Shown: positions 6,093 through 53,130 of the stretch, in pieces
Numbering within the stretch: position 1 is the stretch's first letter
Layout: every line of letters begins with the position of its first letter
NCBI RefSeq assembly: GCF_032884065.1
Contig: NC_088872.1
Coordinates: 11,226,609-11,290,608, forward strand
DNA from: Artemia franciscana
Taxonomy: Eukaryota; Arthropoda; Branchiopoda; Anostraca; Artemiidae
DNA length: 64,000 nt
Reading direction: 5' to 3'
Program-made: the position numbers and the translations under genes
The notes under the pieces: generated by a model
Told to the model about the DNA's origin: nothing
What the model saw: the letters and a program-made list of their open reading frames with translations, nothing else
Databases searched by the model: none

Positions 6093-7796
6093 TAAGGAGC
6101 GACCCGGTTCAATAGTAACCAAAACTCTAAAAAACGGGATTTTGTTAGCAATAGCTACTTCAAAAGAATCGCATTTAAATGCTGATTTTAAATATATAAA
6201 ATTAATCAAGTTTAGTCTTACCCATCAAAAGTTACGAGCCTGAGAAAATTTGCCTTATTTTAGGAAATAGGGGAAAACATCCCCTAAAAGTCATAGAATA
6301 TTAACGAAAATCACACCATCAGATTCAGCGTATCAGAGAACCATACTGTAGAAGTTTCAAGCTCCTATCTACAAAAATGTGGAATTTTGTATTTTTTGCC
6401 AGAAGGCAGATCACGGATGCGTGTTTATTTGTTTGTTAGTTTTTTTTTTTGTTTTTTTTTTTTGTTGTTTTTTTTTCGAGGGGTGATCATATCGACCCAG
6501 TGGTCCTAGAATGTTGCAAGAGGGCTCATTCTAACGGAAATAAAAAGTTCTAGAGCCCTTTTTAAGTGACCAAAAAAATTGGAGGGCACCTAGGCCCCCT
6601 CCCACGCTAATCATTTTCCCAAAGTTATCGGATCAAAATTCTGAGATTGCCATTTTATTCAGTATAGTTGAAAAAGCTTATAACTATGTCTTTGAGGACG
6701 ACTTACTCCCCCACAGTCCCCGTGGGAGGGGCTACAAGTTACGAACTTTGACCTGTGCTTACATATAGTAATGGTTATAGGGAAGTGTACAGACGTTCAG
6801 AGGGATTTTTTTGGTTGGGGGGAGAGTTGTTGAGAAGAGGGGGATATGTTGGGGGAACTTTCCATGAAGTAATTTGTCATGGGGGAAGTAAATTTCCATG
6901 AAGGGAGCGCAGGATTTTCTAGCATTATTAAAAAAAACAATAAAAAAATAAATATAAAAAAGTTTTTTCATCTGAAAGTAAGGAGCAGCATTAAAACGAA
7001 CAAAAATTACTATGCATATGAGGGTATTCGTCCCCTCCTCAATACCTCACTCTTTACGCTAAAGTATTTTTAGTAATTTCAACTATTTATTCTACGGCCT
7101 TTGTGATTCACGGGTCATTCTTAAGGAATTGGGACAAAACTTAAGCTTTGTTGTAAAGAGCGAGGTATTGCTGAGGGGGGTAAACCCCCTCATATACGTA
7201 ATAAAAACATACGAATACAAAAGTTCGTTACGTAAGCTAATTCGTAAGTTACGTATATCTTTTACTAATAAAAACGTTTGTAAAAAATTAAATGTTCTAG
7301 TTGCCTTTTTAAGTAACCAAAAAACTGGGGGGGGGGACTAGGCCTCCTCCACCGCTCCTTTTTCCCCAAAATCATTCGATCAAAACTATGAGAAAGCCAT
7401 TTAGCCAAAAAAATAAATATGCAAATTTCGTTTTAATTATTCATCTGCGGAGAGCCAAAATCAAAACGTGCATTAATTCAAAACGTTCAGAAATTAAATA
7501 AAAAAAACAAGTTTTTTTAAGTGAAAGTAAGGAGCGACATTAAAACTTAAAACGAACAGAAATTACTTCGTATATGAAAGGGGCTGGTCCCTCCTCAACG
7601 CCCCGCTCTTTACGCTAAAGTTTTTTACTGTTTTAAAAAGTAGAGCTGAGAGAAAGTGTCAAACTTTAGCGTAAAGAGTGGGGCGTTGAGGAGGGACCAG
7701 CCCCTTTCATAAACGAAGTAATTTCTGTTCGTTTTAAGTTTTAATGTCGCTCCTTACTTTCAGTTAAAAAAAAACTTGTTTTTTTTATTTAATATC
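5991..7796 (+). mobile_element. Repeat family A, copy a (about 1.7 kb, start hairpin missing)
   Basis: The body begins TAAGGAGCGACCCGGTTCAA at 6093 and ends in a palindrome at 7493-7793. The left arm (7493-7620) and right arm (7664 on) flank a 43-nt loop, 7621-7663. An inner inverted pair, ATACCTCACTCTTTACGCT at 7042-7060 and TTGTAAAGAGCGAGGTATTG at about 7150-7170, forms a second hairpin. An 18-bp direct repeat, TTTTAATTCGTATGAAAT, lies at 5973-5990 and 7797-7814 and brackets the copy plus the 100-bp unit before it. No protein is encoded, so the element is non-autonomous. Whether it is a foldback-type DNA transposon or rolling-circle element is not settled by the sequence. Confidence 0.8.
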
Positions 7797-8319
7797 TTTT
7801 AATTCGTATGAAATCCCTCGGAAAAATTCAGTCAACTAGAAAATATAATGGCTTGTACCTTTGATTAACACAACTGCATGGTTAAATAGGTTTGATTCAT
7901 TGCGTTTAGTTTCCTTCCCTGGTTGATCTTTCAGGAGTAAGGGGGTCACTCCACTAATTCCTAAATATTGCAATTTTATGACTAGTGATATGAAAAAAAA
8001 ATATATTTAGTTTCAAGAACATAAATGCTGTTTTCATTAAGGTTTTTTTTTCTGATCACCTGTTCCAAAAATATTCTAACAGATTGTGATTGGGACTCGT
8101 CTGGGTAGCAGTATTAGCAAAGATAGTGGATGCATCCAAGCTGTAAAAAGTGAAAAAGATATAAAAAGTTTGACTGACCATATATTAAGCAATAGGTTGT
8201 ACGAAAAATCTGGTCAGCCAATAATTCACTTTTCAGGCCTATAGGCTTAGATAGTTTATAGGCCACTATAAATTTTGTAGACCACTATTAACTTTCTTGG
8301 TCTATAATTAAAGAAAATT
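7797..8319. other. Unassigned, no gene seen
   Basis: AT-rich sequence after family A copy a. No supported feature. Confidence 0.4.
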
Positions 8320-8570
8320 TTGAAAAGGCGGCCTTTTATGGATGAAGAGTGATAGATTGCCGAAGATCGTACTTTTTTTTACCATAAATCTGGAACCAAG
8401 TGAAAACCAGGCTGCCCCCCTAATGGAATAAGAAGAGATTATTAGAAAGAGTTGAAAAGAACTGGGAACTTCGGGGAGCGATATAGTGAAACTTTGAATC
8501 ATTGGGGTTGAGAAAGAGTGTTCGTCTCCGGTGGCTTAGTGCTGCGATACCTTGTTAATAGTTGTTATTC
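8320..8570 (+). pseudogene. LINE C-terminal relic, endonuclease/RT type
   Basis: One plus frame reads MKSDRLPKIVLF (from about 8340), then LEPSENQAAPLME, then EEIIRKS*KELGTSGSDIVK, with several stops. In order and spacing this matches the C-terminal tail of a large LINE protein group (RM..DRLP..vLF ... WED.i.kDL.elG.sw ... A.dR..WR). The copy at 10239-10510 has the same string of motifs (MKTDKLLKTVLF, WEDVKKKYL, EMGTF), so the two are relatives. It is truncated at the 5' side and dead. Confidence 0.6.
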
Positions 8571-12900: not shown

Positions 12901-12959
12901 TCGTATGGGTACACTAGCAGTCTCAGCAGCTATATTTTAACTTTGGTTAAACTTGCATA

Positions 12960-18129: not shown

Positions 18130-20240
18130 CCTTAAATTCCATTTACAGTAAGATAAGGTGGACTGCATCCTCCTGTAGAACATCTTGCTGCTGAATTGAT
18201 GAGGTGACATGATTAGTGGGTGTGATTGGGTGTGGCCTCCCACTGGTACTTCCATTCCGTGTTAGTCCACTCCAAATCAACTGCATTTTTGAAATAATTA
18301 ATTGATTCACCAGAGATAGTCTCATTGGAAAGACTGTTTCAAGTTGAGACAGCACATACTGAGGAAAGTTTGTCCTCTCTCTGCATCTAGAGTGCTCCTG
18401 CTGCAGCTTCATTGAGTAGCCTTGTGTCATGGTGGCAAGAGAGGGAGTAAAAATGGAGTTAGCCATGTTGTTTTGGTACGTTTTCTTGACAAAAATGACA
18501 TCTCCTCTGTGCTGCCAGTAAACCAATGTGAGTATCTTCAGGCAATGCAGATGTTCAGGGTAGGGAAGTTGTTGGTGTGGGGCACAAAGCTTAGTTGCTC
18601 TTCTCTGTATGCTCTCTAGGGCTGCCACATCTCCCTTATATTGAGGATTTGTAACAGTGCAGCCAAACTCCAAATGCAGTCTTACAAGAGCATTATATAA
18701 TTTTCTTATTATCAGAGGATGGTGTGATGATATGGTTTGTTTAATTAGTCCCAGGGCTCTGTTGGCCTTAGTAACTTGTTGCATAGTGTGCTCATGGAAC
18801 TTAAACTTCCTGTCAAAGATCACCCCTAAGTCTCATTCACTCTCAACAGCCTCAACTTGGATATGTGTGCCAGATTTATCCAGCATAAAATATGAAATCT
18901 GATTGTTGTGGGGACCCATATGAAGGACTTTGCATTTTGATGGGTTGAACTCCATCATCCAGGTGGAAGCCCATAAGGAGAGACTATTCAAGTCATTTTG
19001 CAGGGTTCCATTGGCAATTCCAATTAGTTTGCTGTCATCAGCATAGAGATTGATGGGGTTTTGTAGAACATCCTTACAGTTATTAATATATATAGAGAAG
19101 AGGGTGGGACCAAGGATGCTTCCCTGGGGTACCCTGCTTATAACTGGTGCAGGCTCTGAAAATATGGGGTCTCCATTGTCAGAATAGACCATGACCTTCT
19201 GGATTTGGCCAATCAGAAACAATCTTATCCACTCCACAGTGTCAGCATGGACTCCATATGCCTGGAGCTTATGTAAAAGATATTTGTGGACAACTTTATT
19301 GAAGGCCTTGGCTTGGTTGAGTAACAGGACATAAACTGCTTTACCTTCCTCAATTAATTTAGTGACTATATCATAAGAGTGGATCAGGTTTGTCTCAATG
19401 GAATGACTCCTTCTGAAACCATGTTGAGATTTCAACAATAAACCATTTTGTTCAAGGTGGTTAATAATAGCATCATTGAAAATACTTTCAAGCAGTTTAG
19501 AAATGACTGATATTAGACTAATAGGCCAGTAATTTTCAGGGTTATTTTTATCTCCCTTCTTGAAAATTGACACTATATTGGCCGATTTCCAATCAGCTGG
19601 TACCATCATCATCCTTATGGACATCTTAAAAATATCAGCCAGTGGAATGGCAACAAGAGCTGCAGCTTCTTTCAGCAAATGTGGATGAATGCCATCAGGG
19701 CCCTGGGCCTTGTTTGGATCCAACTTATTCAGGTGCTTGAGAACATCATCCACATCAATCACAACAGATGGCATTTTGTGGACATGGTTTCTTTTTGGGA
19801 AAGGGGGAGGAGGAGATACTAAAACTGAATGAGAGAAATTAGTGGCAAATATGGCATTTAAACAATTTGCAATGTCTGTAGGGGAATCAAACACAGTAGC
19901 ATCAGAATGTATAAGCTGGCATATTCTATGTCTATTAGGATTAGAGCTGGAAACATACTTCCAAAACTTTTTAGGGTTTGTTTTTGCACTAAGGGCTATA
20001 TTTACTTCATAATCACTTATGATTTTACGTGTGAGATTTCTCAGCTTGTTACAGCATTTCTTGAAATCAGCAAGATGATTCTCCCGTTTTGATTTCTTGT
20101 ATTTCTTCCATGCCTTATTCTTACTCTTAATGCCTTCTCTTACCTCTTTAGTGAGAAATGGCACTGTTTTATGCATCTTCTAAAGCAAATGCTATAACAA
20201 AAAGCTTTTTGAACTGCTTGAATAAAACCCCCAGACATCA
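18130..20240 (-). pseudogene. Jockey/CR1-like LINE, RT domain nearly complete, inactivated
   Basis: Two minus-strand open blocks, 20176-18833 (447 codons) and 18830-18143, are in the same frame, split by one TGA at 18833-18835. In the first, residues 1-60 are a basic linker, then come GPDGIHP (159-165), GFRRSHSIETNLI (253-265), motif A VYVLLLNQAKAFNKV (281-295), motif B VPQGSILGPTLF (349-360) and motif C YADD (378-381). In motif A both usual Asp residues are Asn (287 and 293), so polymerisation should be lost even if the TGA were read through. The C-terminal block ends with a frameshift near 18350-18400, after which the right frame (ESINYFKNAVDLEWTN) also shows a Trp-to-stop change. An in-frame TAG at 20180-20182 and no endonuclease upstream indicate 5' truncation. 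The superfamily is clear; the exact clade is not. Confidence 0.9.
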
Positions 20241-20640
20241 GTAAAAAGCTCAAATTAGGGAAAAAATATTCAAGCTAAAAAATAAGAAAAGTTAGGCAAA
20301 TACAATGGTGAGACCATTCACTTTAGGTAGGGTAATTGGGACTTTACAGTGATTTAATTGTTGGAGTGGCAATTGGGTGCCTGACTGCTGGGTATCTTAC
20401 CATGTTTCATAATAGTCTATGTACAAAACTTGTTGTCAACAGATTTTCTATTTGCCTCCACTGTTAATCACTTTTTTGTACATAGATTAATTACCCTAAT
20501 TTGCACTTCAGAGCAAATTAAGATCATCTTGGTCTGTGAATTGCTCCATACTTGATGATGTGAATGATTAAATATCAATTGAGTCTCACTAATTCTTCCA
20601 GGGAACACCATTCTATTCAAAATCTAGTAACTACTTGAAA

Positions 20641-21530
20641 GCTTCATTGTTGGGTGTTGAGACCATTGCACCCAAGAGACTATTCCAGTGGTTACTAAAC
20701 AACAGGAGGAAAACTGTCGTCAGTATTGAGTTTTGACACATGTCTTGAACAGCTTCTTTGAATGTCCCCTCCTGTCAGTGCCAATATTTTGGGAAGTTGA
20801 TAAGTGAATTAAGGGGGTTTCTTGTGTAGTAAGCTTATAGGTCATGAGCATGTCAGCTCTTTGTTGTCAGTAAACTAGTGTAGATAATCTCAGATTCTTC
20901 AATATGGCTTGTCTCTCATCTTTGTTACATCCTTAGTAGCTCTGCTTTGCACCTGTTCCAAGAGCTGTAGATCACCCCTGTATCCTGGTGAAGCTATGCA
21001 CATTCCAAAATCAAGTACTGGTTTGACAAGGGCCTTGTGTAACCTCATGAAAACATAAGAAGACCTACTGGAGATAGTGCAAGGAAAGAGTTTGTATGAG
21101 ACACAGTCTTCTTGCAGTTTGAATTGAATTTATGCTGGTTGCCAACAACAGTTCCAATACCCCTTTCTTTATCCACAGCTTGTAGCTTTTGAATGTTGTT
21201 TACAGCTGGATTGACCATAGTATACTTAAAACTTGAGTTGGACTTGCCAAAATGTATAACACTACTTTTGCCAGTATTGAAACTCATGTACCATGATCTT
21301 GTCCAGTTTTGAATATGGTCAGAATCTGCTTGTAGTGACTCATGGTTGACTGCACCAAACAACTTTGAGTTCTCAGCATAGAGAGTGAGGTGATTTGTAG
21401 CTATGTGAATAATATTTTTTATATAGATATTGAACAGGGTAGGTCCTAAGACAATACCCTGCAGGACACCACTGATGACTCCATATTTCTCAGAGAGAAT
21501 TTGTTTTTGTTTTTTTGAAATTGCATGCAT
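20641..21530 (-). pseudogene. Second LINE reverse transcriptase fragment
   Basis: The open part at 21530-21045 reads ISGVLQGIVLGPTLFNIYI (motif B with Pro changed to Leu), then YAENSKLFGAV (motif C; YADD decayed to YAEN, residues 51-54), then MSFNTGKSSVIHFGKSN. The latter aligns with MEFNPSKCKVLHMGPHN of the neighbouring LINE. Decayed C-terminal sequence continues to about 20640 with frame changes (LVKPVLDFGMCIASPGY at about 20960-21030). It is related to, but clearly diverged from, the copy at 18.1-20.2 kb and lies on the same strand. It starts inside the RT domain, so it is 5' truncated. Confidence 0.8.
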
Positions 21531-23430: not shown

Positions 23431-25710
23431 TGAACATATTTGGCTTTGACTCTTATGTTTGTATGACGAAACTTCACAACCTTCTTTTGTAAGTGTTGGG
23501 ATCTAATTGTAAAAAAAATATGTTCATTTGAGGTACTGTCGTTTGAATGCAATTGCATTGAATCAGAATCTGGGGAAGGGTGTCATTGGTGTGGGTTTGT
23601 TTTAATTTTGTTGAAACACAAAAGCCCTTACTTCTAATTACATCTCAACTCTTACACCTTACATTAGTTTATTTTTATTACTTGATTTCTGACTGTTTTA
23701 ATATTATGTTCATATTTACCCAAAATAGGATGGTCATTACTACCTTCCCCCTTCCATCTTCTCGTTAAAGTTAAATTTTGCACAATAATGCTTCAAAAAT
23801 AATGATTAAACAATGAAAAATATGTCTTCTTACATTGGTTTTGCAGGGGTAGATCTGAAACGCCAAAAATAATATTTCTTTGTTGTACTGTGTAAATTTT
23901 TCAGAGAGGGGGCTCATTGGAAATATTGTACATGGGGGAATATATCTTCCTCCCAGCTTTTCACATGTGCAGACAAAAATATGAATTTGATCTTTTATGT
24001 CATACTAAAAATAGTTCTGCAATAAAAGGAAATTTACCAGTCCTTTACTGTTCATATTGAACAAGTTGTATAAATATATTCTACCAATCAAAAGAGGCTA
24101 TGGGATGAGCAACCCCCCCCCCCTCATCCCGCGATATTGAGCTGAAGAACTTCTTTTGAACCTAATTTGACACACAAAAGCCCTTACATCCAGTAAATAT
24201 ATATTCCTTCTTTTTTCTAATTTAATTCCTTGACAGTTTTTGAGCATGCTGTTCTCACAAAGGGTCATAATATTGAGGCTGATCAACTGCAAAGTAATGG
24301 AAATTAAGGCAAGGGAACATTATCTTTGGTATTGGTTTATTTTATTTCTGTTAATAATACACCAAATAAATATAAGTCTTTCTTTTAATTTTTGCTTATT
24401 TTTTCAAGTTGCAGTCAATGCAGATTTATCATGAATGCAGTCAAATCTCGTTAATTGCTAAAAGGCAAGAAGGGCCTGTGCTCCCTCCCCTAGATTTTGA
24501 AATAATCTTGAATTTTTGTTGTTGGTATTTTCTTTAAACAAATGACCAATTCGCCCCCCCTAGATAATGAAAAATACATTTTGTCGTCTCCCCTACATTT
24601 TCTTGAATTTCCTGGAACTGCTTTAGTTCGAGACTCTTGCATTTGTGTGCACTGTTTCATGGTGATAATCCTAAAGATGTTTGCTGACCTCTTTTATTTT
24701 GTTTTTCGGGTTGTTCTCACATTTTAATTCCTCAGAGGATCATTCAGGGATATTGGAGGATTTTACCTAGGGTTCAAAAATTGAAAGTTCATTTCTCTTG
24801 GGGGCTGTCTTTTAGATCACTCTATTAGGGGATCTTCCCTCTGTAAACAGGAATATAAGGAGAATTCCTTTGGTTTATCACATATAACAAGGATTATTTC
24901 ATCAAATTTTAGTTTATACCCCAATTCCCCCCAAAAATGTTTTTTAATTTCTTGGGGAGGGAAATCTAGAGGAGGGAAGCATAGAATACAGGCCCCCCTT
25001 GTATCTCTCCAGTTAACGCGACTTGACTGCAATCTTTCATTAAAAGAGTGCAAGTGAGAATAAGGATTGCCAAAATACATGTTCGCTATTACTTCCAGTT
25101 CCTGTTATTTTAATCTACAAGAATATATTTTTATTGACAATTTTGATTTTGATTAGAAATGTAACCAAAAGCTTAATGGCAAATTGTGCAAAGACACAGC
25201 TTTAGAAGGAGGAAAAGGGTCGCAGTAGAAAAAGAAGCAATAACTATATTTGTTTATTATTTAAGCTCTCCTGACCTCTTTTGCTAGCCTCTCGCTCCCT
25301 AGACGTATATTGAGCTCTTTATAGTTTGGAACTTATGGGGAGTCAGGGTTGCCATTGACATTGAAAATATCCCAAGATTTACTTGCAGAAAAGCCAAGGT
25401 CTTAAAAAACCGAAGGTATAATATATGCTCAATACACTCTTTCTGTGTAATGTTCAGCATAATAAATCTTTGGAAAAATTTCGAGGTGTAACAATCTTGA
25501 TAGTAATGAGGGACAAGTGAAAATTAAATTTTTTTTTGTCCTGGGACGAAAAACTTAGTAAATAGAGGTTAAAGTGGTCATCAAATGCTTTTGGATCATA
25601 GCTATATAAAATAAGTATTTGGCTCACCACTAAATGTTCCAATTATTATAAATTGATACATATCAGGTAGGTAGCACTAGCTAGCATCTAATATGTACAA
25701 TATTCATCAT
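23431..25710. other. Unassigned; contains a small dispersed repeat (G)
   Basis: 24475-24620 (CTCCCTCCCCTAGATTTTGAAATAAT ... shortened here to its start CTCCCTCCCCTAGATTTTG) has the same layout as 33030-33245: C-rich blocks each followed by TAGA.TTTGAAAAATAC-like sequence. No gene is supported. Frames of 60-90 codons on both strands lack motifs. Confidence 0.35.
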
Positions 25711-27374
25711 ACAGTTCGTGGTAACGAACTGTAGTAAGGAGCGACCCGGCTCAATAGTAACCAAAACTCTAAAAAATGGAATTTTGATACCAATACCTAC
25801 ATCAAAAGAATCGCATTTTAATGCTGATTTTGAATATATAAGTTTCATAAAGTTCAGTCTTACCCATCAAAAGTTACGAGCCTGAGAAAATTTGCGTTAT
25901 TTTAGAAAATAGGGGGAAACGCCCACTAGAAGTCATAGAATCTTGACGAAAATCACACCATCAGATTCAGCGTATCAGAGAACCCTACTGTAGAAGTTTC
26001 AAGCTCCTATCTACAAAAATGTGGAATTTTTTTTTGCCAGAAGGCAGATCACTGATGCGTGTTTATTTGTTTTCTTGTTTTTTTGTTTTTTTTTCCCAGG
26101 GGTGATCGTATCGGCCCAGTTGTCCTAGAATTTTGCAAGAGGGCTCATTCTAACGGAAATGAAAAGTTCTAGTGCCCTTTTTAAGTGACTAAAAAAATTG
26201 GAGGGCACCTAGGCCCCCTCCCACGCTAATCATTTTACCAAAGTCAACGGATCAAAATTCTGAGATAGCCATTTTGTTCAGCATAGTCAAAGAACCTTAT
26301 AACTATGTCTTTGGGGACGACTTACTCCCCCACAGTCCCCGTGGGAGGGTAACAAGTTACAAACTTTGACCAGTGCTTACATATAGCAATGGTTATTGGG
26401 AAGTGTACAGGCGTTTTCAGGAGGATTTTTTTGGTTGGGGGAGGGGTTGAGAAGAGGGGGATATGCTGGGGGAACTTTCCATCGATAATTTGTCATGGGG
26501 GAAGAAAATCTCCATGAAGGGAGCCCAGGATTTACTAGCATTATTTAAAAAAAAAAACAATGAAAAAATAAATATGAAAAAGTTCTTTCAGCTGGAAGTA
26601 AGGAGCAGCATTAAAACTTAAAACAAACAGAAATTATTACCCATTTGAGGGGCTCACCTCCTCCTAATACCTCGCTCTTTACGCTAAAGTATTTTTAGTA
26701 ATTTCAACTATTTATTCTACGGCTTTTGTGATTCTGGGGTCATTCTTAATGAATTGGGACAAAATTTAATCTTTATTGTAAAGAGCGAGGATCTGACAAG
26801 GGGGCGAGCCCCCTCATATATGTAATAAAAATATGAGAATACAAAAGTTCTTTACGTAAGCTAATTTATAAGTTACGTAAATCTTTTACTAATAAAAATA
26901 TTCGTAAAAAATTAAAAATTCTACTTGCCTTTTTAATTAACCAAAAAATCGGAGGGCAACTAGGCTTCCTCCCCCGCTCTTTTTTTCTCAAAATCATTTG
27001 ATCAAAATTATGAGAAAGCCATTTAGCCAAAAAAAAAAAAAAAAAAAATGCAAATTTTGTTTTAATTATTCCTCTGCGGAGAGCCAAAATTAAAACATGC
27101 ATTGATTCAAAAACGTTCAGAAATTAAAAACTTAAAACGACCAGAAATTACTTCGTATATGAAAGAGGCTGCTTCCTCATCAACGCCCCGCTCTTTACGC
27201 TAAAGTTTTTTACTGTTTTAAAAAGAAGAATTGAGAGAAAGAGTCAAACTTTAGCGTAAAGAGCGGGGCGTTGATGAGGAAGCAGCCTCTTTCATATACG
27301 AAGTAATTTCTGGTCGTTTTAAGTTTTAATGTCGCTCCTTACTTTCAGTTAAAAAAACTTGTTTTTTTTTTTAA
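25711..27374 (+). mobile_element. Repeat family A, copy b
   Basis: Starts with the hairpin CAGTTCGTGGTAACGAACTG (25712-25731; stem CAGTTCGT/ACGAACTG) then TAGTAAGGAGCGACCCGGCT. The body follows the family order, and the inner hairpin pair is at about 26670 and 26780. The terminal palindrome lies at 27129-27374. Its left arm lacks its first 40 or so bases, but what remains pairs exactly with the right arm (GAAAGAGGCTGCTTCCTCAT and its complement). Both arms share a private change, ACCAG/CTGGT, where other copies have AACAG/CTGTT. Confidence 0.85.
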
Positions 27375-27455
27375 TATAACTCAGGAGCTGAAAAAAACCT
27401 CTCTGTTTCCTTGTGAAAATCTTATGGTGGCGCAGTAGATCGATCTCTGCTGGCA

Positions 27456-33640: not shown

Positions 33641-34080
33641 TAACTCATCAAAATTTTGGATTTCCATAGAGGAATTTGTCATGGGGAAGTGAATATTCCA
33701 TGGAGGGGAAGCCAGACTTCTCAGCATCATTTAAAAACAATCAGAAACTGAATAAAAAAGTACGTTTTTTTTAACTGCAAGTAAAAAGCAACGTTAAAAC
33801 TTCAAACGGACAAAAATTATTACTTATATGAGGGGGGTCGTCCCTAAAAAATGCCTCGCTCTTTACGCTAAATATTTTAGTACTTTTAAAAGAGCTATTT
33901 ATTCTAATTAAACGACCCTTGTGATTCATGAGTGATTCTTAAAAAATTTGGACAAAATTCGAACTTTAGCGTAAAGAGTGAGCTATTGACGAATATGCGT
34001 AATAATTTCTGTTCGTTTAAGTTCTAATGTTGCTCCTTACTTTAAGTTGGAAAAGCTTTTTTCTTATATTTAATACTTTA
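33641..34080 (+). repeat. Family A variant, inner hairpin at the end
   Basis: TAGAGGAATTTGTCATGGGG, GTAAAAAGCAACGTTAAAAC, then the inner pair CCTCGCTCTTTACGCTAAA (33864 on) and CTTTAGCGTAAAGAGTGAG (33963 on), then TGTTGCTCCTTACTTTAAG and a T-rich end. The separate terminal palindrome of full copies is absent; the inner hairpin takes its place. Confidence 0.7.
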
Positions 34081-35640
<1,560 letters not shown>

Positions 35641-35810: not shown

Positions 35811-35843
35811 GTGTTGGGGTGGCGCTTCGCGCCACCCCAACAC
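35811..35843. repeat. Perfect 15-bp hairpin with 3-nt loop
   Basis: GTGTTGGGGTGGCGC (35811-35825), loop TTC, then GCGCCACCCCAACAC (35829-35843). It lies where Helitrons carry their 3' terminal hairpin, but the CTRR end expected for classical Helitrons is not seen right after it. Confidence 0.9.
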
Positions 35844-36314
<471 letters not shown>

Positions 36315-36600
36315 TGTCCCCGTCGGCATTTATATATCCCCCTGTGCCCCCGGCATCCCCCTTGTAGTTGTGTTCCTGTGTCCCGGTCGTCATTTATATT
36401 CCCAGTATCTCGGTCGTCATTTGTGTCTCAGTGTCCCAGTCTGTAATTTCTCTTTGAGCGTTCCAGTCGTCATTTATATTCCCCGTGTCCCGGTCGTCAT
36501 TTGTGTCCCGGTGTCCCGGCCTGTAATTTATCTTTGAGTGTCCCAGTCTGTAATTTCTCTTTGAGTGTCCCGGTCGTCATTTATATTTCCTGTGTCCCGG
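36315..36600. repeat. GTCCCGG minisatellite, second block
   Basis: Units of GTGTCCCGGTCGTCATTTAT and CAGTCTGTAATTTCTCTTTG, irregularly arranged. Confidence 0.85.
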
Positions 36601-36885
36601 TTTTTAGTTTTCTTTTTCTCCTTTATTTTTCAGTTTTTTTCCTTTTTTTAGTTATTTTTATTTTTCAGTTTTTAGTTTTTTTTAGTTTCTTTTTATTAGT
36701 TTTTGTTTTTTTCTTTTTTTTTTTTTTAGGTTTTACCTTTTTTTTTAGCTTTTTTTAGTTTTTTTCTTTTTTAATATTTTGTTTTTTACCTTTTTTTAGT
36801 TTTTTAGCTTTTTTAGTTTTTTTAGTATTTTCTTTTTAGTCTTTTTTGTAGTTTTTACCTTTTTTAGTTTTTTTCTTCTTTTGTA
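36601..36885. repeat. T-rich low-complexity tract, TTTTTAG units
   Basis: Runs of T broken by AG, CC or CTT in a loose TTTTTTAGTTTTT pattern. Confidence 0.9.
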
Positions 36886-36889
36886 TTAA

Positions 36890-36963
36890 TGCTAAAACCA
36901 AGGTTCGAACCTGGAACCTCTCGGACCTGGAACATAACGCTTTACCAACTCAGCTACTTCGGC
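36890..36963 (-). tRNA. tRNA-like sequence, probably a pseudogene
   Basis: Minus strand starts GCCGAAGTAGCTGAGTTGGT (A box TAGCTGAGTTGG) and carries GGTTCGAACC (B box) in a good T arm (CCAGG/CTTGG). The acceptor stem GCCGAAG pairs with TTTTAGC at six of seven positions including two G-U, and A follows as discriminator. The D stem has three pairs. The anticodon arm region does not form a convincing five-pair stem, so I assign no anticodon. It lies between Helitron-associated minisatellite blocks and was probably carried by that element. Confidence 0.5.
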
Positions 36964-36994
36964 TTGAATACATTCGTTTTTGAATTGGTATATG

Positions 36995-37070
36995 ATGTGT
37001 TCCGGTCGTCATTTATATTCCCTGTGTCCCGGTCGTCATTTGTGTCCCGGTGTCCCGGTCTGTAATTTCG
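36995..37070. repeat. GTCCCGG minisatellite, third block
   Basis: Three further units (GTTCCGGTCGTCATTTATAT, CCGGTCGTCATTTGTGTCCC) after the tRNA-like sequence. Confidence 0.8.
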
Positions 37071-37083
37071 TCAGTCACAAACA

Positions 37084-37166
37084 TGACGTCAGACGACCAA
37101 CAACTTCATGACGACATGCAGCTCAACCCTTATAATGACGTCAGTCGACACACAAACATGACGTCA
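37084..37166. repeat. Three TGACGTCA palindromes in short direct repeats
   Basis: TGACGTCA occurs at 37084-37091, 37136-37143 and 37159-37166, the last two inside ATGACGTCAGTCGACA repeats. The octamer equals the CREB/ATF site, but here it sits in repeat DNA and a regulatory role is not implied. Confidence 0.7.
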
Positions 37167-37197
37167 GTCGACAGACCCACAGACAAACAACTTATTT

Positions 37198-38759
<1,562 letters not shown>

Positions 38760-40235
38760 AACAGCTCATATGGCGCTTGTGACGAGGTTGGAAGAGCCAA
38801 GAGCTCATATTGCACTTGTGATGAGGGTGGAATCTAAAATTAGACTCAGTACTAGAGTTATCGATTTCATCGTCCTTGCACGTCAAGAAGCACCAAACTC
38901 GCCAAAGCACTAGAAATCCCTCCAATTCCCCTAGAGATCAGATTCGGTCCACTTATGTCTATCACGTGTCTATAACTTGTGGTTCTTATCGAACTCGCCA
39001 AAGTACTAGAAATCCCCTCAACTCCCCCAAAAAGAGCAAATCCGGTCCTGTTATGTCAATCGCGTATCAATGACTTATGCTTATTCTTCCCATCAAGTTT
39101 CATCACGATCTCCGCACTCTAAGAGTTTTCCAAGCTTTTTGATTTCCATGATTTCTGTTCCCCCCCTCCACCCTCTATGTCTCGGATTGAAAATGAAGCA
39201 TCGGGGCATGAGATCTTCCTATATATCAAGTTTCATTAAGATCTGATCACCCATTCGTAAGGTAAACATACCTCCATTGTCAAAATTCTCCCTCCCTCCA
39301 GCCCCCTCCCGTGATGGTCGAATCGGGGAAACGACTGTTATCAAGTCAAATTGTGCTGGTCACTGACACATTTACCAATTTTCATCGTCCTAGCACGTCC
39401 AGGAGCACCGAACTCGTCAAAGTACTGGGAATCTACCCCCCCTCCAACTCCCCAATAGCCCCGATCCCGTCCGGTTATGTCAATTACGTATCTAGGACTT
39501 GTGTTTGTTCTTCCCACCAACTTTCATCCCGATTTCTCCACAGTAAGCGTTTTCAAAGATTTCCGGTTTCTCCCTCTAACTCCCCCCAATGTCACCGGGT
39601 CCAGTCGGGATATAAAATAAGAGCTCTGAGACTTGAGGTATTTCTAAATATCAAATTTTGTTATGATCTGATAACCCGTTCGTTATGTCAATCAAGTATC
39701 TAAGACTTTCGCTTATTCTTCTTACCAAGTATCATCACGATCTCTCCACTCTAAGGGTTTTCCAAGATTCCTGGTTTCCTCCTCAAACTTCCCCCAATGT
39801 CACCAGACCCTGTCAATATTTAAAATAAGAGCTCTGAGACAGGAGGTCTTTCTAAATATCGTATTTCATTAAGATCCAGTTACCACTTCATAAGTTAAAA
39901 ATACCTCACTTCTCTAATTTTTCCGATTTACCAAATTATGTCTCCCCCCACCAACTCCCCAAAGCGAGTGGATCCGGTGCGGCTATGTCAATTACGTATC
40001 TAGAACTTGTGCTTATTCTTTCCACCAAGTTCTCAATCTCTCCACTCTTAAGTGTTTCCCAAGATTTCAGGTTTACGCCTCCAACTCCCCCCAGTGTCAC
40101 TGGATTCGGTCGGGATTTAAAATAAGAGCTCTGAGACATGATATCCTTCTAAATATTATATTTCATTAAAATCCGAATCACCTGTTCGTAAGTTAAAAAT
40201 ACCTCATTTTTCCTAATTTTTCCGAGGATGTAGGT
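38760..40235 (-). repeat. Dispersed repeat family C, inverted copy
   Basis: In reverse this copy matches 59860-61860: units with TTTTTAACTTACGAACGGGT, GATCGGATC, ATGAAATTTGAT, TAGAGCTCTTATTTTAAATC, CCGACCGGATC, AGACTTGGAAAACACTTAGAG and GTCCTAGATACGTAATTGAC. The units repeat about every 290-300 bp. Its left end has the CTCATATGGCGCTTGTGACG and GAAGAGCCAAGAGCTCATAT units also seen at 61670-61860. It ends close to family A copy d. Confidence 0.75.
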
Positions 40236-40259
40236 GCGGTCTCGATACACGGAACCAAT

Positions 40260-41985
40260 TATCAAACAGTTCGTGGTAACGAACTGTAGTAAGGAGCGAC
40301 CCGGCTCAATAGTAACCAAAACTCTAAAAAATGGAATTCTGATACCAATAGTTACATCAAAAGAATCGCATTTTAATGCTGGTTTTAAATATATAAGTTT
40401 CATCAAGTTTAGTTTTACCCATCAAAAGTTACGAGCCTGAGAAAATTTGCGTTATTTTAGAAAATAGGGGGAAACGCCCCCTAAAAGTCATAGAATCTTA
40501 ACGAAAATGACACCATCAGATTCAGCGTATCAGAGAACCCTACTGTAGAAGTTTCAAGCGCCTATCTACAAAAATGTGGAATTTTGCATTTTTTGCCAGA
40601 AGGCAGATCACGGATGCGTGTTTATTTGTTTTTTTGTTTTTTTGTTTTGTTTTTTTTTCTTTTTCCCAGGGGTGATCGTATCGACCCAGTTGTCCTAGAA
40701 TGTTGCAAGAGGGCTCATTCTAACGGAAATGAAAAGTTCTAGTGCCCTTTTTAAGTGACCAAAAAAATTGGAGGGCAACTAGGCCCCCTCCCACGCTAAT
40801 TATTTTCCAAAAGTCAACGGATCAAAATTCTGAGATAGCCATTTTATTCAGCGTAGTCGAAAAACCCTATAACTATGTCTTTGGGGACGACTTACTCCCC
40901 CACAGTCCCCGTGGGAGGGGCAACAAGTTACAAACTTTGACCTGTGCTTACATATAGTAATGGTTATTGGGAAGTATACAGGCGTTTTCAGGAGGATTTT
41001 TTTGGTTTGGGGGAGGGGTTGAGAAGAGGGGGATATGCTGGGGGAACTTTCCTTAGAGAATTTGTAATGGGAGAAGAAAATTTCCATGAAGGGAGAGCAG
41101 GATATAGGCTACTAGCATTATTGAAAAAAAAAAATTAAAAAATAAAAGTGAAAAAGCTTTTTCAGCTGGAAGTAAGGAACAGCAATAAAACTTAAAACAA
41201 ACAGAAATTATTACCCATATGAGGGGCTCACCTCCTTCTAATACCTCGCTCTTTACGCTAAAGTATTTTCAGTAATTTCAACTACTTATTCTACGGCTTT
41301 TGTGATTCAGGGGGTCATTCTTAATGAATTGGGATAAAATTTAAGCTTTAGTGTAAAGAGCGAGGTACTGACGATGGGGCGAATCCCCTCATATATGTAA
41401 TAAAAACATGAGAATACAAAAGTTCTTTACGTAAGCTAATTTATAAGTTACGTAAATCTTTTACCAATAAAAAGATTCGTAAAAAATTAAAAGTTCTAGT
41501 TGCCTTTTTAATTAACCAAAAAATCGGGGGGCAACTAGGTTTCGTCCCCCGCTCTTTTTTTCTCAAAATCATTCGATCAAAATTATGAGAAAGCCATTAA
41601 GCCAAAAAAAAAATATGTAAATTTCGTTTTGATTATTCCTCTGCGGAGAGCCAAAATAAAAAAATGCATTGATTCAAAAACGTTCAGAAATTAAATAAAA
41701 AAAACAAGTTTTTTTAACTGAAAGTAAGGAGCGACATTAAAACTTGAAACGCACAGAAATTACTTCGTATATGAAAGAAGCTGCTTCCTCATCAACGCCC
41801 GCTCTTTACGCTAAAGTTTTTTACTGTTTTAAAAAGAAGAATTGAGAGAAAGAGTCAAACTTTAGCGTAAAGAGCGGGGCGTTGATGAGGAAGCAGCCTC
41901 TTTCATATACGAAGTAATTTCTTTGCGTTTTAAGTTTTAATGTCGCTCCTTACTTTCAGTTAAAAAACTTGTTTTTTTATTTAAT
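40260..41985 (+). mobile_element. Repeat family A, copy d (full length)
   Basis: Begins ATCAAACAGTTCGTGGTAAC with the CAGTTCGT/ACGAACTG hairpin, then GTAAGGAGCGACCCGG. The inner hairpin pair is 41240-41263 and 41346-41367. A second GTAAGG word precedes it near 41171. The palindrome is 41690-41985; its arms differ only slightly, one being a missing C in CGCCCG. It ends AAACTTGTTTTTTTATTTAAT. There is no protein-coding content. This is the best reference copy in the window, about 1,725 bp. Confidence 0.9.
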
Positions 41986-45600: not shown

Positions 45601-45610
45601 GATTCGCAGT

Positions 45611-46438
45611 TATCAAACAGTTCGTGGTAACGAACTGTAGTAAGGAGTGATCCGGCTCAATAGTAACCAAAACTCTAAAAAATTGAATTTTGATATCAAT
45701 AGCTACATCAAATGAATAGCATTTTAATGCTGATTTTAAATATATAAGTTTGATCAAGTTTAGTCTTAGCCATCAAAAGTTACGAGCCTGAGAAAATTTG
45801 CCTTATTTAGGAAAATAGGGGGAAACACCCCCCAAAAGTCGTAGGATCTTAACGAAAATGACACCATCAGATTCAGAGTATCAGAGAACCCTACTGTAGA
45901 AGTTTCAAGCTCCTATCTACAAAAATGTGGAATTTTGCATTTTTTGCCAGAAGACACATCACGGGTGCGTGTTTATTTGTTTTTTTTTTTTTGTTTTTTT
46001 TCCCAGGGGTCATCGTATCGACCAAGTGGTCCTAGAATGTCGCAAGAGGGCTCATTCTAACGGAAATGAAAAGTTCTAGTGCCCTTTTTAAGTGACCAAA
46101 AAAATTGGAGGGCATCTAGGCCCCCTCCTACGCTCATTTTTTCCCAAAGTCAACGGATCAAAATTTTGAGATAACCATTTTGTTCAGCATAGTCGAAAAT
46201 CATAATAACTATGTATTTGGGGATGACTTACTCCCCCACAGTCCCTGGGGGAGGGGCTGCAAGTTACAAACTTCAACCAGTGTTTACATATAATAATGGT
46301 TATTGGGAAGTGTACAGACGTTTTCAGGGGGATTTTTTTGGTTTTGGGGGTAGGGTTGAGGAAGGGGGCTATGTGGGAGGATCTTTCCTTGGAGAAATAT
46401 GCCATGGGGGGAAAAATTCAATGAAAAGGGCGCAGGAC
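45611..46438 (+). mobile_element. Repeat family A, left-half copy
   Basis: Starts TATCAAACAGTTCGTGGTAA with the start hairpin and follows the family to GAAAAGGGCGCAGGA, where it stops. The palindromic half is absent. It lies directly upstream (minus sense) of the decayed gene's first visible exon. Confidence 0.85.
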
Positions 46439-46771
46439 GAATCTGATCACGTTAGAAAAAAAACGTCAAATTCAGAGCTTAATATACAATGCTGGGTGTT
46501 CGGAGCCTCTCCATTATGGAGTATAATTTGAAAATAACACAACTATACGAGCGATAAAACATATATACCACAACCATAACTCAACTAACGAAAGAACTGC
46601 TAAGAGATAACACAACTATAAAGCGAAAACAGGTGAAAACTAACGGGAAAATAAACGAACTAAGAGGTGGAAGGGGCCCAGAGAAAAAATATAATCCTTT
46701 TTCAATTTTGAGCCTAACTTCCGCAAAGGAGTAATAATGTCAGAAGCCCCGAAATACCGAATTATTTTCTT
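46439..46771. other. Spacer between two family A copies
   Basis: No gene or repeat identified. Confidence 0.4.
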
Positions 46772-48513
46772 TTCAAACAGTTCGTGGTAAAGAACTGTAG
46801 TAAGGGGCGACCCGGCTCGATAGTACACGGAACTCTAAAAAACGAAATTTTGATGCTAAAAGATACATCAAAAGAATCTAATTTTCACGCTGATTCTAAA
46901 TATATAAGTTTCAATTAATTTAGTCGTTGTCATCAAAAGTTACGAGCCTGAGAAAATTTGCCCTATTTTGGAAAAAAGGGGGAAACATCCCCTAGAAGTC
47001 ATAGAATCTTAACGAAAATCACACTATCGCATTCGGCATATCAGAGAACTCCATAGCAAAAATTTCAAGCTCCTATCTAAAAAATGTGGAATTTCATATT
47101 TTTTGCCAGAAGACAAATCACGGGTGCGTGTTTATTTGTTTGTTTGTTGTTTTTTTTTCCCCAGGGGTCATCGTATCGACCAGGTGGTCTTAGAGTGTCG
47201 CAAGAGGGCTCATTCTTACGGAAATGAAAAGTTCTAGTGCCCTTTTTAAGTGATAAAAAAATTGGAGGGCAAATAGGCCCCCTCCCACGCTAATTTTTTC
47301 CAAAAGTCAACAGATTAAAATTTTAAGATAGCCATTTTGTTCCGCATAGTCGAAGACCATAGTAACTATGTCCTTTGGAATGACTTACTCCCCCACAATC
47401 CCTGGGGGAGGGGCTGCAAGTTACAAACTTTGACCAGTGCTTCCATATAGTAATGGTTATTGGGAAGTGTACAGACGTTTTCATGGGGATTTTTTGGTTT
47501 GGGGGGTGGGGTTGATGGGAGAGGGCTTTGTGGGAGGATCTTTCTTTTGAGGAATATGTCATGGGGGAAGAAAAATTCAATGAAAAGGGCGCAGGATTTT
47601 CTAGCATTACTATAAAAAAAACAATGAAAAAATAAACATGAAAACGTTTTTTCAAATGAAAGTAAGGAATAGCATTGAAATTTAAAACGAACAGAGATTA
47701 TTACGCATGTGAGGGGTTCTAAAAATACTTTAGCATAAAGAGCGAGGTATTTAGGAGGAGATAAATACCTCGCTCTTTATGCTAAAATATTTTTAGTAAT
47801 TTCAACTATTTATTCTACGGCCTTTTTGATTCAGGGGTCATTCTTAAAGAATTGGGGCAAAACTTACGATTTAGTGTAAAGAGCGAGGTATTAACGAGGG
47901 TACAAACCCCCTCGTACACATAATAAAAATATAAGAATATAAAAGTTTGTTACGTAAGTTAATTCTTAAGTTACGTATATTTTTTACTAATAAAAACGTT
48001 CGTTGAAAATTAAAAGTTCTAGTAGCCTTTTTAAGTAACCGAAAAATTCGAGGGCAGCTAGGCCTCCTTCCCCACCCCTTATTTCTCAAAATCGTCTGAT
48101 CAAAACTAAGAGAAAGCCATTTAGCCAAAAAAAAAATTACACTAATTTCAATTCAATAATTCGTGTGCGGAGAGCCAAAATCAAACATGCATTAATTCAA
48201 AAACGTTCAGAAATTAAATAAAAAAAACCAGTTTTTTTATCTGAAAGTAAGGAGCGACATTAAAACTTAAAAAGAAACGAAAATAACTTCGTATATGAAA
48301 TGGGTTGTCCCCTCCGCAGTCCCTCGCTCTTTACGCTAAAGTTTGACTCTTTGCCACAATTCTACCTTTTAAAACAATTAAAAACTTTAGCGTAAAGAGC
48401 GAGGGACTGCGGAGGGGACAACCCATTTCATATACGAAGTTATTTTCGTTTCATTTTAAGTTTTAATGTCGCTCCTTACTTTCAGATAAAAAAACTAGTT
48501 TTTTTTATTTAAT
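46772..48513 (+). mobile_element. Repeat family A, copy e (inverted loop)
   Basis: Starts TCAAACAGTTCGTGGTAAAG; one stem base differs. The palindrome is 48213-48513 with arms that match each other almost completely over the inner half, including private sequence (GGGTTGTCCCCTCCGCAGTC and its complement; ATCTGAAAG/CTTTCAGAT; AACGAAAATAACTTCG and its complement). The 43-nt loop, 48342-48384, reads TTTGACTCTTTGCCACAATT onward, the reverse complement of the loop in the other plus-oriented copies. A further inverted duplication of about 33 bp sits at 47720-47753/47762-47795. Confidence 0.9.
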
Positions 48514-49945: not shown

Positions 49946-50089
49946 AGAAAATTAATAGCACCTGTGTCCTGAAAAAGTTTATAAGAAATTTTTCGGGACT
50001 GGGATTCGAAGGGGGTACTGGCAACTTAAAGCTATTGAGGGTATACTACTTGTATTCAACCTCAGCAAGCAGAGCTGTATTGTATAGTA

Positions 50090-50823: not shown

Positions 50824-51092
50824 TAAGTAAGGAGCGACATTGAAGCTTAAAACGAACAGAAATTACTCCGTAAATGTAGAGGACTTTTCCTCCTCAACGC
50901 CCCGCTCTTTATGCTTAAGTTTTTTACTGTTTTAAAAAGTAGAGTAAAGAGAAAGAGTCAAACTTTAGTTTAAAGAGCGGGGCGTTGAGGAGGAAAAACC
51001 CTTTTCATTTAGGGAGTATTTTCTGTTCGTTTTTAAGCTTTAATGTCGCTCCTTACTTTCAGTTAAAAAAAAAACTTTTTTTTTTATTTAAT
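50824..51092 (+). mobile_element. Family A, solo terminal palindrome (copy f)
   Basis: TAAGTAAGGAGCGACATTGA begins a left arm that pairs with the right arm ending GTCGCTCCTTACTTTCAG, then the T-rich family end. The family body is absent. The arms share GAGGA/TCCTC variants but have several mismatches. It is flanked on the left by (TTA)n. Confidence 0.85.
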
Positions 51093-51444
51093 AGGTATTT
51101 GAAAAGTAGTGGGGCTAGATATGCAAATTAAGATATACCAAACTGTAACATAATATACCATATTGTAATAATAATAATAAAATCATCAAACTCCTTTTAA
51201 TTTTCATTTCAAATGGAATAACTCAGTTTATTTTTATTTCACTTTTTACATAAAAATTTGAAAGTCACTTGATTGTTGTACATTATTAATAGTGCCCGAG
51301 AGGCTAAGCTTTGGAATTAGCTTAGCCCTAATGTCTTGGAGCTAAACGTTAATCAGTTTAAATCTGATATCTTCCAAACAGATTGCGAATGAATGGGAAA
51401 AATTAATAGTAATGTATTGAATTTGAGCTTCGTTTTTTATCTAA

Positions 51445-53130
51445 ATTAAATAAAAAAACAAGTTTTTTTAACTGAAAGGGAGGAGCAACATTAAAACTTA
51501 AAACGAACAGAAATTACTTCGTATATGAAAGGGGCTGCTTCCTCATCAACACCCCGCTCTTTACGCTAAAGTTTGACTCTTTCTCTCAACTGTTCTTTTT
51601 AAAACAGTAAAAAACTTTAGCGTAAAGAGCGGGACGTTGATGAGGAAGCAGCCCCTTTCATATACGAAGTAATTTCTGTTCATTTTAAGTTTTAATGTCG
51701 CTCCTTACTTTCAGTTAAAAAACTTGTTTTTTTTTATTTAAATTCTGAACGTTTTCGAATCAATGCATATTTTGATTTTGGCTCTCCTCAGAGGAATAAT
51801 TAAAACGAAATTTGCATATTTGTTTTTTTTTTTGGCTAAATGCCTTTCTCATAATTTTGATTGAATGATTTTGAGAAAAAAAGAGCGGGGGAGGAAGCCT
51901 AGTTGCCCTCCGATTTTTTGGTTAATTAAAAAGGCAACTAGAACTTTTAATTTTTTACGAATCCTTTTATTAGTAAAAGATATACGTAACTTATAAATTA
52001 GCTTAAGTAAAGAACTTTTTTATTCTCATGTTTTTATTACATAGGCTATATAAGGGGATTCGCCCCCTCGTCAGCACCTCGTTCTTTACACTAAAGCTTA
52101 AATTTTGTCCCAATTCATTAAGAATGACCCCTGAATCACAAAAGCCGTAGAATAAATAGTTGAAATTACTAAAAATACTTTAGCGTAAAGAGCGAGGTAT
52201 TAGGAGGAGGTGAGCTCCTCATATGGGTAATAATTTCTGTTCGTTTTCAAGTTTTAATGCTGCTCCTTACTTCCAGCTGAAAAAAACTTTTTCATATTTA
52301 TTATTTCATTGTTTTTTTTAATAATGCTAGTAAATCCTGCGCTCCCTTAATGGAAATTTTCTTCCCCCATGACCAATTTCTCGATGGAAAGTTCCCCCAG
52401 CATATCCCCCTCTTCTCAACCCCTCCCCCAACCAAAAAATCCTCCTGAAAACGCCTGTACACTTTCCAATAACCATTACTATATGTAAGCTCTGGTCAAA
52501 GTTTGTAACTTGTAGCCCCTCCCACGGGGACTGTGGGGGAGTAAGTCGTCCCCAAAGACATAGTTATAAGGTTTTTCGACTACGTTAAATAAAATGGCTA
52601 TCGCAGAATTTCGATCTGTTGACTTTGGGAAAATAATTAGCGTGGGAGGAGGCCTAGGTGCCCTCCAATTTATTTGGTCACTTAAAAAGGGCACTAGAAC
52701 TTTTCATTTCCGTTAGAATGAGCCCTCTCGCAACATTCTAGGACAACTGGGTCGATACAATCACCCCTGGGAAAAAAAAACAACAAAAAAACAAACAAAC
52801 AAAATAAACACGTATCCGTGATCTGCCTTCTGGCAAAAAATACAAAATTCCACATTTTTGTTTCTATGACTTTTAGGGGTTGTTTCTCCCTATTTTGTAA
52901 AATAACGCAAATTTTCTCAGGCTTGTAACTTTTGGTAAGGACTAAAATTTTGATACCAATATTGTAACATTGATAGGACTAAACTTGATGAAACTTATAT
53001 ATTTAAAATCAACATTAAAATGCTATTCTTTTGATGTATCTATTGATATCAAAATTCCATTTTTTAGAGTTTTGGTTACTATTGAGCCGGGTCGCTCCTT
53101 ACTACAGTTCGTTACCACGAACTGTTTGAT
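51445..53130 (-). mobile_element. Repeat family A, copy g
   Basis: The palindrome is at the left, 51445-51740, with matching arms (GGGGCTGCTTCCTCATCAAC and its complement). The start hairpin is at the right end, CAGTTCGTTACCACGAACTG followed by TTTGAT. About 75 bp are missing near 52861, and a local duplication lies at about 52935-52985. The loop orientation agrees with the normal type when read along the element. Confidence 0.9.

What the first reader, a model, noticed from the sequence alone, without database searches (positions are those of the whole stretch)
7493..51740. Family A: palindrome arms co-vary within copies but differ between copies
Six copies end in, or consist of, a palindrome of about 300 bp: 7493-7793, 27129-27374, 41690-41985, 48213-48513, 50824-51092 and 51445-51740. 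The arm segment just outside CTCTTTACGC differs between copies (GGTCCCTCCTCAACGCC, GCTTCCTCATCAACGCC, GTCCCCTCCGCAGTCCC), and each version is mirrored in its partner arm. Private changes such as ACCAG/CTGGT at 27.1 kb and ATCTGAAAG/CTTTCAGAT at 48.2 kb are mirrored as well. Independent point mutation would not do this. Fold-back copying during transposition or repair, or arm-to-arm gene conversion, would. Transcripts would form long hairpins and could feed small-RNA pathways.
Basis: partly seen in the sequence, partly recalled or inferred. Interest (0 to 1): 0.85.

Follow-up and report, generated by a model that had tools for sequence, protein, structure and literature searches.

The report
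Self-matching ends of rolling-circle-like transposons
Each palindrome is the right end of a roughly 1.7-kb brine-shrimp mobile element that looks like a rolling-circle transposon; its two halves change together in the lineages that give rise to new copies but drift apart in many copies that have landed, which points to one half being copied onto the other before or during jumping.

Summary
The mirrored-arm pattern is real, but mostly not made copy by copy. There are seven palindromes in the window, not six; six end a ~1.7-kb non-autonomous element (5'-TC hairpin, 13-bp inverted repeats about 31 nt from each end, no target-site duplication at the one site resolved), Helitron2/Helentron-like. 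Scaffold lengths point to Artemia franciscana. In the window, arms differ by 5.3% within copies and 13.8-14.8% between; the true pairing is the best of 5040. With 67 genomic palindromes only 11 of 134 arms have their own partner as unique nearest relative, because relatives share the mirrored variants. Differences between subfamilies are mirrored (13 of 14 site comparisons), whereas inside the p7493-like subfamily changes hit one arm (120 against 4 mirrored in 29 independent insertions). In the younger 48213-like group the split is less clean (6 private mirrored, 8 private one-arm). The loop is inverted in 12 of 65 oriented copies, in at least four subfamilies. Template switching between arms predicts both marks. 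Equalisation is not automatic at each jump: one arm difference is shared by 8 of 9 forward-loop 48213 relatives. Best reading: arm-templated copying in source elements, or symmetry kept by selection. Small RNAs were not testable.

The parts
6092..7793 (+). element copy, 5' hairpin lost; right-terminal palindrome 7493-7793 (inner arm 7493-7619, loop 7620-7664, outer arm 7665-7793)
25706..27375 (+). element with both ends; palindrome 27127-27375 (inner arm shortened to 78 nt, 27127-27204; loop 27205-27249; outer arm 27250-27375)
40257..41985 (+). element with both ends; palindrome 41690-41985 (inner 41690-41815, loop 41816-41860, outer 41861-41985)
46770..48513 (+). element with both ends; palindrome 48213-48513 with INVERTED loop 48341-48385 (inner 48213-48340, outer 48386-48513)
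51445..53134 (-). element with both ends, inverted; palindrome 51445-51741 (outer 51445-51570, loop 51571-51615, inner 51616-51741)
50825..51092 (+). palindrome alone, without element body; starts at the inner-arm copy of the 13-bp subterminal repeat (inner 50825-50918, loop 50919-50963, outer 50964-51092)
45611..46437 (+). left-end fragment of the same element, no palindrome
62247..62919 (-). diverged left-end fragment (about 23-27% from the others)
33661..34074 (+). related element with one arm pair around a longer loop
40288..40300 (+). 5' subterminal inverted repeat AGTAAGGAGCGAC of copy 40257 (also at 25733 and 53091)
41942..41954 (-). 3' copy of the same 13-bp repeat, inverted, in the outer arm
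40261..40287 (+). 5' terminus TCAAACAGTTCGTGGTAACGAACTGT: starts with TC and forms a terminal hairpin (coordinates to within a base)

Best explanation
The palindrome is the right-terminal structure of a non-autonomous, Helitron2/Helentron-like element. Shown: (1) differences between three subfamilies are mirrored in both arms at nearly every site; (2) changes inside the p7493-like subfamily are almost all in one arm; (3) the loop has been inverted repeatedly; (4) the one resolved insertion made no target-site duplication. Inferred: in the lineage of transposing copies, one arm is from time to time used as template for the other. This could be polymerase template switching at the hairpin or cruciform, or hairpin-templated synthesis or repair in a single-stranded transposition intermediate. 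It equalises the arms and sometimes inverts the loop. After insertion the copy is copied only by ordinary replication and the arms drift apart. Whether copying is really more frequent in transposing copies, or symmetric copies are merely the ones that keep transposing, is not settled.
For: Window: within-copy 5.3% against 13.8-14.8% between; true pairing best of 5040. Control: the left-unit arm, ~500 bp away, is no closer to its own copy's right arms than to those of other copies (0.275/0.264 against 0.261/0.254). Six copies show 26 arm mismatches against 64.8 expected from their body branch lengths. 67 palindromes: within-copy 4.5% against 9.4% for random pairings, 0 of 20,000 as low. Subfamily majority differences, mirrored against one-arm: 9:1, 4:0 and 12:1 for the three pairs of groups. 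Within the p7493-like subfamily 4 mirrored against 145 one-arm changes in 35 copies (Fisher p = 5e-11 with 9:1), or 4 against 120 in 29 independent insertions; private changes 0 against 51. Loop inverted in 12 of 65 oriented copies; nearest relatives are forward-loop for L055, L058_677, L088, L099, L107, L123, L124. 6 of the 13 mirrored differences used are transversions, which cannot pass through G-U pairs. Copies sharing a flank can keep arm mismatches (L067/L068 share 8, L061-L063 share 4, L060 shares 3 with them). Template switching is reported to cause both arm homogenisation and spacer inversion (PMC8604942, passages; PMC8794818, passages).
Against: In the 48213-like group mirrored changes also arise within the subfamily: 15 mirrored against 15 one-arm in all, 6 private mirrored against 8 private one-arm; own arms are closer than random pairings there (4 of 20,000 as low). 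I read these as source-lineage changes in a younger group, but cannot show it. Four of the six are a cluster in 48213 itself. No transposition intermediate was seen and no autonomous partner with these ends was found; the one autonomous Helitron looked at has none of them. The column-137 asymmetry (A inner/T outer) is shared by 8 of 9 forward-loop 48213 relatives with different right flanks, so equalisation does not happen in every transposition. The p7493-like subfamily may descend from one symmetric master, in which case absence of inherited asymmetry there says little. Flank-sharing copies L053/L057/L092/L103 share no arm mismatch and L065/L066 share one. Both groups were chosen by similarity, which disfavours mirrored changes because each counts twice. 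Arm singletons (35 of 2800) are rarer than body singletons (338 of 16829; p = 0.006), which could be that bias or some in-place equalisation. Confidence was lowered from 0.55 to 0.5 after the recount.
Confidence: 0.5

Rival explanations
1. Selection for a perfect terminal hairpin: arms are copied rarely everywhere, but only copies whose palindrome is symmetric can transpose, so source lineages look equalised.
For: Explains the contrast between mirrored differences among subfamilies and one-arm changes inside the p7493-like one without a higher copying rate in transposing copies; 48213 shows a clustered mirrored change not seen in the other 14 copies of its group.
Against: Still needs arm-to-arm copying: loop inversions, clustered multi-base mirrored changes and transversions are not made by stepwise compensation. 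Copies with an arm difference at column 137 were found at many sites.
Confidence: 0.25
2. Continuous arm-to-arm gene conversion in every resident copy.
For: In the 48213-like group 6 private mirrored against 8 private one-arm changes; L071 has two mirrored changes; arm singletons are somewhat fewer than body singletons. The closeness of own arms in the 40-copy p7493-like set (2 of 20,000) disappears when 41690-like and flank-sharing copies are removed (1653 of 20,000).
Against: 0 of 35 arm singletons mirrored in 14 copies; 4 mirrored against 120 one-arm in 29 independent insertions. A rough in-place rate from this (kappa*t about 0.11 at about 2% divergence) would leave source arms tens of percent different, yet group majorities differ between arms at 0-1 of ~100 sites. 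Arms of seven copies not picked by similarity differ by 5-17% (leaving aside the truncated L083_9466).
Confidence: 0.12
3. Obligatory fold-back copying at each transposition, so every new insertion starts perfectly symmetric (first reader's first option; the fold-back model recalled for zebrafish Angel elements).
For: No fixed arm difference in the p7493-like group in the region tested; shared one-arm changes there are about as often in opposite arms as in the same arm (27 and 30 pairs, 28.5 same-arm pairs expected at random, P = 0.38), i.e. recurrent mutation rather than inherited asymmetry.
Against: The column-137 asymmetry is present in the same arms in 8 of 9 forward-loop 48213 relatives with different right flanks.
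Confidence: 0.08
4. Assembly or polishing artefact that mirrors one arm onto the other.
For: Short palindromes are difficult to sequence; one assembly was examined.
Against: 72 palindromes of this structure were found, one-arm differences are abundant, and mirrored alleles are shared by copies at unrelated sites.
Confidence: 0.02

Closest known systems
Helitron2 / Helentron elements and their non-autonomous HINEs (DINE-1)
   Same: Hairpin at the 5' end, start TC (in some, e.g. FoHeli1/2), short inverted repeats near the 5' end and some tens of nt inside the 3' end, a short palindrome near the 3' end, no target-site duplication (PMC4067079 and PMC5148889, passages; PMC7492417, passages).
   Different: Carries an extra ~300-bp palindrome made of the 3' end and its inverted copy; 3' end TTTAA(T); autonomous partner not identified.
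Template-switch (quasipalindrome) mutation
   Same: Equalises inverted-repeat arms and inverts the spacer (PMC8604942, PMC8794818, passages).
   Different: The yeast cases in the passages of PMC8604942 have arms of 7-16 bp and inverted spacers of a few bases; here arms are ~125 nt with a 45-nt loop, in a dispersed element.
Concerted evolution of palindrome arms (mitochondria of Nematomorpha; human X and Y)
   Same: Arms change in step (PMC6649704, passages).
   Different: Those are particular loci; here the coupling follows the transposing lineage and is weak or absent among resident copies of one subfamily.
Angel and other fold-back MITEs
   Same: Near-perfect hairpin elements with mirrored changes (recalled, not read).
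   Different: Here the palindrome is only the end of a longer element, no TSD was seen, and asymmetry can be inherited.

Membership tests
Helitron2/Helentron non-autonomous element (HINE) | no target-site duplication on insertion | tested here: met
   One insertion resolved: joined flanks of L053 match 40 scored places (of 396 candidates) across the junction; the four fetched align there without gap
Helitron2/Helentron non-autonomous element (HINE) | hairpin at the 5' end, start TC | tested here: met
   TC in 15 of 16 rows with a readable 5' end; of the 25 rows printed 7 had none in the stretch and 2 were dropped as duplicates; hairpin ACAGTTCG/CGAACTGT
Helitron2/Helentron non-autonomous element (HINE) | short subterminal inverted repeats, asymmetric with respect to the ends | tested here: inconclusive
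   13-bp AGTAAGGAGCGAC exact in both orientations, but about 31 nt from each end, so not clearly asymmetric
Helitron2/Helentron non-autonomous element (HINE) | short palindrome near the 3' end | tested here: met
   AAAAAACTTGTTTTTT about 8 nt from the 3' end of copy 40257; low-complexity, so weak
Helitron2/Helentron non-autonomous element (HINE) | T-rich (TT) target for Helentrons | tested here: inconclusive
   base before TC is A in 11 and T in 4 of 15; the one resolved empty site is GATTATTGTT, where one T cannot be assigned to element or target
Helitron2/Helentron non-autonomous element (HINE) | autonomous Rep/helicase partner with the same ends | tested here: inconclusive
   Helitron_like_N is abundant (7436 first-look candidates, 150 scored), but the stretches read around a single copy hold none of these ends
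canonical Helitron (Helitron1) | 3' CTRR with hairpin 10-12 nt upstream | tested here: not met
   3' end reads TTTAA(T); 22 of 25 rows end in TTAAT as printed
MITE (TIR transposon derivative) | terminal inverted repeats flanked by TSD | tested here: not met
   no TSD at the resolved site; none apparent by eye at the window copies
template-switch mutation | arm equalisation together with spacer inversion | tested here: met
   both marks present in the family; that one event made both was not shown

The most novel reading that the evidence does not exclude
The terminal palindrome folds in a single-stranded rolling-circle intermediate, where one arm templates the other, so arm symmetry and loop orientation record passage through that intermediate. 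Mirrored changes would then track rounds of transposition and one-arm changes the time since landing.
Probability: 0.28. Interest if true: 0.75.

Novelty: new variant of a known kind. Interest (0 to 1): 0.55.

Why it matters
Arm equalisation in palindromes is usually studied at single loci. Here a family with thousands of first-look candidates (3855 and 2700 for two queries) offers many replicates, with one-arm decay as an internal clock, loop orientation as a second marker, and at least one insertion with 40 scored empty sites. It would make the question whether rolling-circle transposons pass through a foldable single strand open to a purely genomic test.

Tried and rejected
Chance palindromes: rejected. 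Arm coupling as a mere same-copy effect: the left-unit arm shows none. Left arms grouping with left arms: not seen. TSD-type transposon: rejected for the one resolved site. Obligatory fold-back at each jump: contradicted. Viral contigs: 41 pattern matches, none similar to the palindromes at E 1e-4. Pfam scan of ten of the 28 listed window ORFs found only reverse transcriptase, plus a sub-threshold poxvirus hit; a peptide from the L053 flanks matched no family. Literature searches showed no paper on mirrored arms in Helitron-like palindromes in their listings; most subscription journals are not held. Genome searches for relatives of 27456, 41690 and 50825 were asked for but did not complete; for 27127 and 51445 none was asked for. 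Five of 72 palindromes were dropped for loop length; L083_9466, with a truncated arm (33% divergence), was kept and inflates the within-copy mean. The 48213-like set is 14 of 39 listed relatives plus 48213. The apparent own-arm closeness in the 40-copy p7493-like set proved to come from mixed subfamilies and duplicates.
Full report
What is there. The window holds seven palindromes of 249-301 bp, not six; 27456-27752 (minus strand) was missed. Six are the right end of a repeat of about 1.7 kb: 25706-27375, 27456-29160 (minus), 40257-41985, 46770-48513 and 51445-53134 (minus) have both ends, 6092-7793 lacks the 5' hairpin. 50825-51092 is a palindrome alone; 45611-46437 and 62247-62919 are left-end pieces. 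The genome is 1,270,528,402 bases in 6468 contigs, the window being C10:11226609-11290608. C2 (67,337,973) and C17 (45,252,357; both in the listing) have the lengths given as longest scaffold and N50 for the female Artemia franciscana assembly in PMC11492255 (passages). C1 (71,465,782) is longer than that paper's longest scaffold and the totals differ slightly, so this is probably a related version. That paper assigns 8.81% of the genome to Helitrons.

What kind of element. The left end reads TCAAACAGTTCGTGGTAACGAACTGTAGTAAGGAGCGAC: a terminal hairpin, then a 13-bp repeat found inverted about 31 nt from the right end. TC stands at the start in 15 of 16 rows with a readable 5' end. The joined flanks of copy L053 match 40 scored places of 396 candidates across the junction, at lengths within a few bases of the query's. 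Four fetched ones show an uninterrupted GATTATT(G/T)TT there, so no target-site duplication. This agrees with Helitron2/Helentron ends (PMC5148889, PMC4067079, passages). The 3' CTRR of canonical Helitrons is absent. Rep domains of Helitrons are abundant, but the stretches I read around one autonomous copy hold none of these ends. Membership is therefore likely but not proved.

Arm coupling in the window. Within-copy divergence is 36/676; between copies it is 14.8% (inner-inner), 13.8% (outer-outer) and 14.3% (inner-outer); no other pairing of the 5040 is lower. The ML tree pairs own arms in five of seven copies. The left-unit arm ~500 bp away shows no same-copy closeness, so coupling belongs to the adjacent arms. 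Arm mismatches in six copies total 26 against 64.8 expected from their body branches; the smallest of 20,000 simulations gave 36. Taken copy by copy, the deficit is clear for 48213, 7493 and 27127 and not for 27456, 41690 and 51445.

Arm coupling in the genome. I gathered 72 palindromes: 7 of the window, 39 p7493-like, 14 relatives of 48213, 11 in 20 spaced 10-kb stretches and one neighbour. 67 had loops of 40-50 nt. Within-copy divergence is 4.5% against 9.4% for random pairings. Yet the own partner is the unique nearest arm for only 11 of 134 arms and tied for 19. Close relatives share the same mirrored variants, so much of the mirroring is inherited.

When arms are equalised. Group majority states differ at 10 sites between the p7493-like and 48213-like groups, 9 of them mirrored; at 4 of 4 mirrored sites between p7493-like and 41690-like; and at 13 sites, 12 mirrored, between 48213-like and 41690-like. 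Inside the p7493-like group there are 145 one-arm and 4 mirrored changes in 35 copies, or 120 and 4 in 29 independent insertions. Two of the four mirrored ones are the 41690-like allele. Private changes there are 51 in one arm and none mirrored, and own arms are not closer than random pairings (4.15% against 4.28%). In 14 copies with a comparable body, 35 arm singletons include no mirrored one; arm singletons run at 1.25% and body singletons at 2.0%, a difference that selection by arm similarity may cause. Among copies sharing a flank, some keep common arm mismatches (8, 4 and 3), others share none or one. The 48213-like group is less clean: 15 mirrored and 15 one-arm changes, 6 and 8 if only private ones count, and own arms closer than random. 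Eight of the 15 are two alleles shared by L111, L112, L119 and 48213, so they were probably inherited; four of the private ones lie within 12 columns of 48213. I read this as a younger group in which source-lineage changes still show, but equalisation on single-copy branches is not excluded.

Loop inversion. The loop of 48213 is reversed relative to the six others. Genome-wide it is reversed in 12 of 65 oriented copies: 3 of 40 p7493-like and 6 of 15 48213-like, plus L058_677, L072_3468 and L088_7903. L111, L112, L119 and 48213 are nearest to one another and probably share one reversal; L055, L099, L107, L058_677, L088, L123 and L124 have forward nearest relatives. That makes at least four subfamilies (p7493-like, 41690-like, 48213-like, L088). 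In L123 the loop is reversed and the A/T pair at column 137 is swapped to T/A, as a reciprocal exchange between arms would do; this rests on one site.

Limits. Eight of nine forward-loop 48213 relatives share the column-137 asymmetry at sites with different right flanks, so jumping does not force symmetry. In the p7493-like group shared one-arm changes fall in opposite arms about as often as in the same arm (27 and 30 pairs), which fits recurrent mutation but also a single symmetric master. Two columns of the A-rich end tract, outside the region tested, have different inner and outer majorities there.

Mechanism. Template switching between inverted-repeat arms is reported to equalise arms and invert spacers. 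It fits both marks here, as does recombination between arms. The contrast between subfamily differences and p7493-like resident copies needs either more frequent copying in transposing copies, for example in a folded single strand of a rolling-circle cycle, or selection for symmetric ends. I favour the former without excluding the latter.

Small RNAs. The strand folds into a very stable hairpin. No expression or small-RNA data were at hand; that part of the finding remains untested.

Noticed in passing
34990-37400: (TA)n tracts and GTCCCGGTCGTCATTT tandem repeats; similar GGGACACCGGGACACAAATGACGACC repeats lie beside a Rep-bearing Helitron (L129), so this stretch is probably Helitron-derived.
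   Followed up: partly
G000: 7436 first-look candidates for Helitron_like_N, 150 scored, many with almost the same score and open frames up to 2091 aa: apparently a recently active autonomous Helitron family; the one copy looked at lacks the ends of the element studied.
   Followed up: partly
L053, L057, L092, L103: Four copies of the element share the same right flank (the left flank was compared for L053 and L057 only); the host sequence is itself a repeat with at least 40 scored empty sites.
   Followed up: partly
L072, near 3468: Three nt beyond the 3' end of one element (palindrome 3468-3766, minus strand) the 5' end TCAAACAG of another begins, a head-to-tail pair.
   Followed up: no
54605-58735 (+): Open frame of 1376 codons, stop to stop, without a Pfam match at E 0.01; possibly a host gene exon.
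   Followed up: no
18143-21530 (-): Reverse transcriptase open frames of a retroelement (RVT_1, E 3.5e-28 and 5.4e-08).
   Followed up: no
39466-39860 and 59955-61635: Related tandem arrays with units of about 208-303 bp.
   Followed up: no
27376-27455 and 29161 onward: The copy 27456-29160 interrupts a sequence that looks like a tRNA-derived SINE by eye; not verified.
   Followed up: no
40257-41985: The element is built like a tandem dimer: a 117-bp direct repeat (471-587 and 1228-1342 of the copy) and a left stem-loop whose arm is about 25% from the right palindrome arms.
   Followed up: partly
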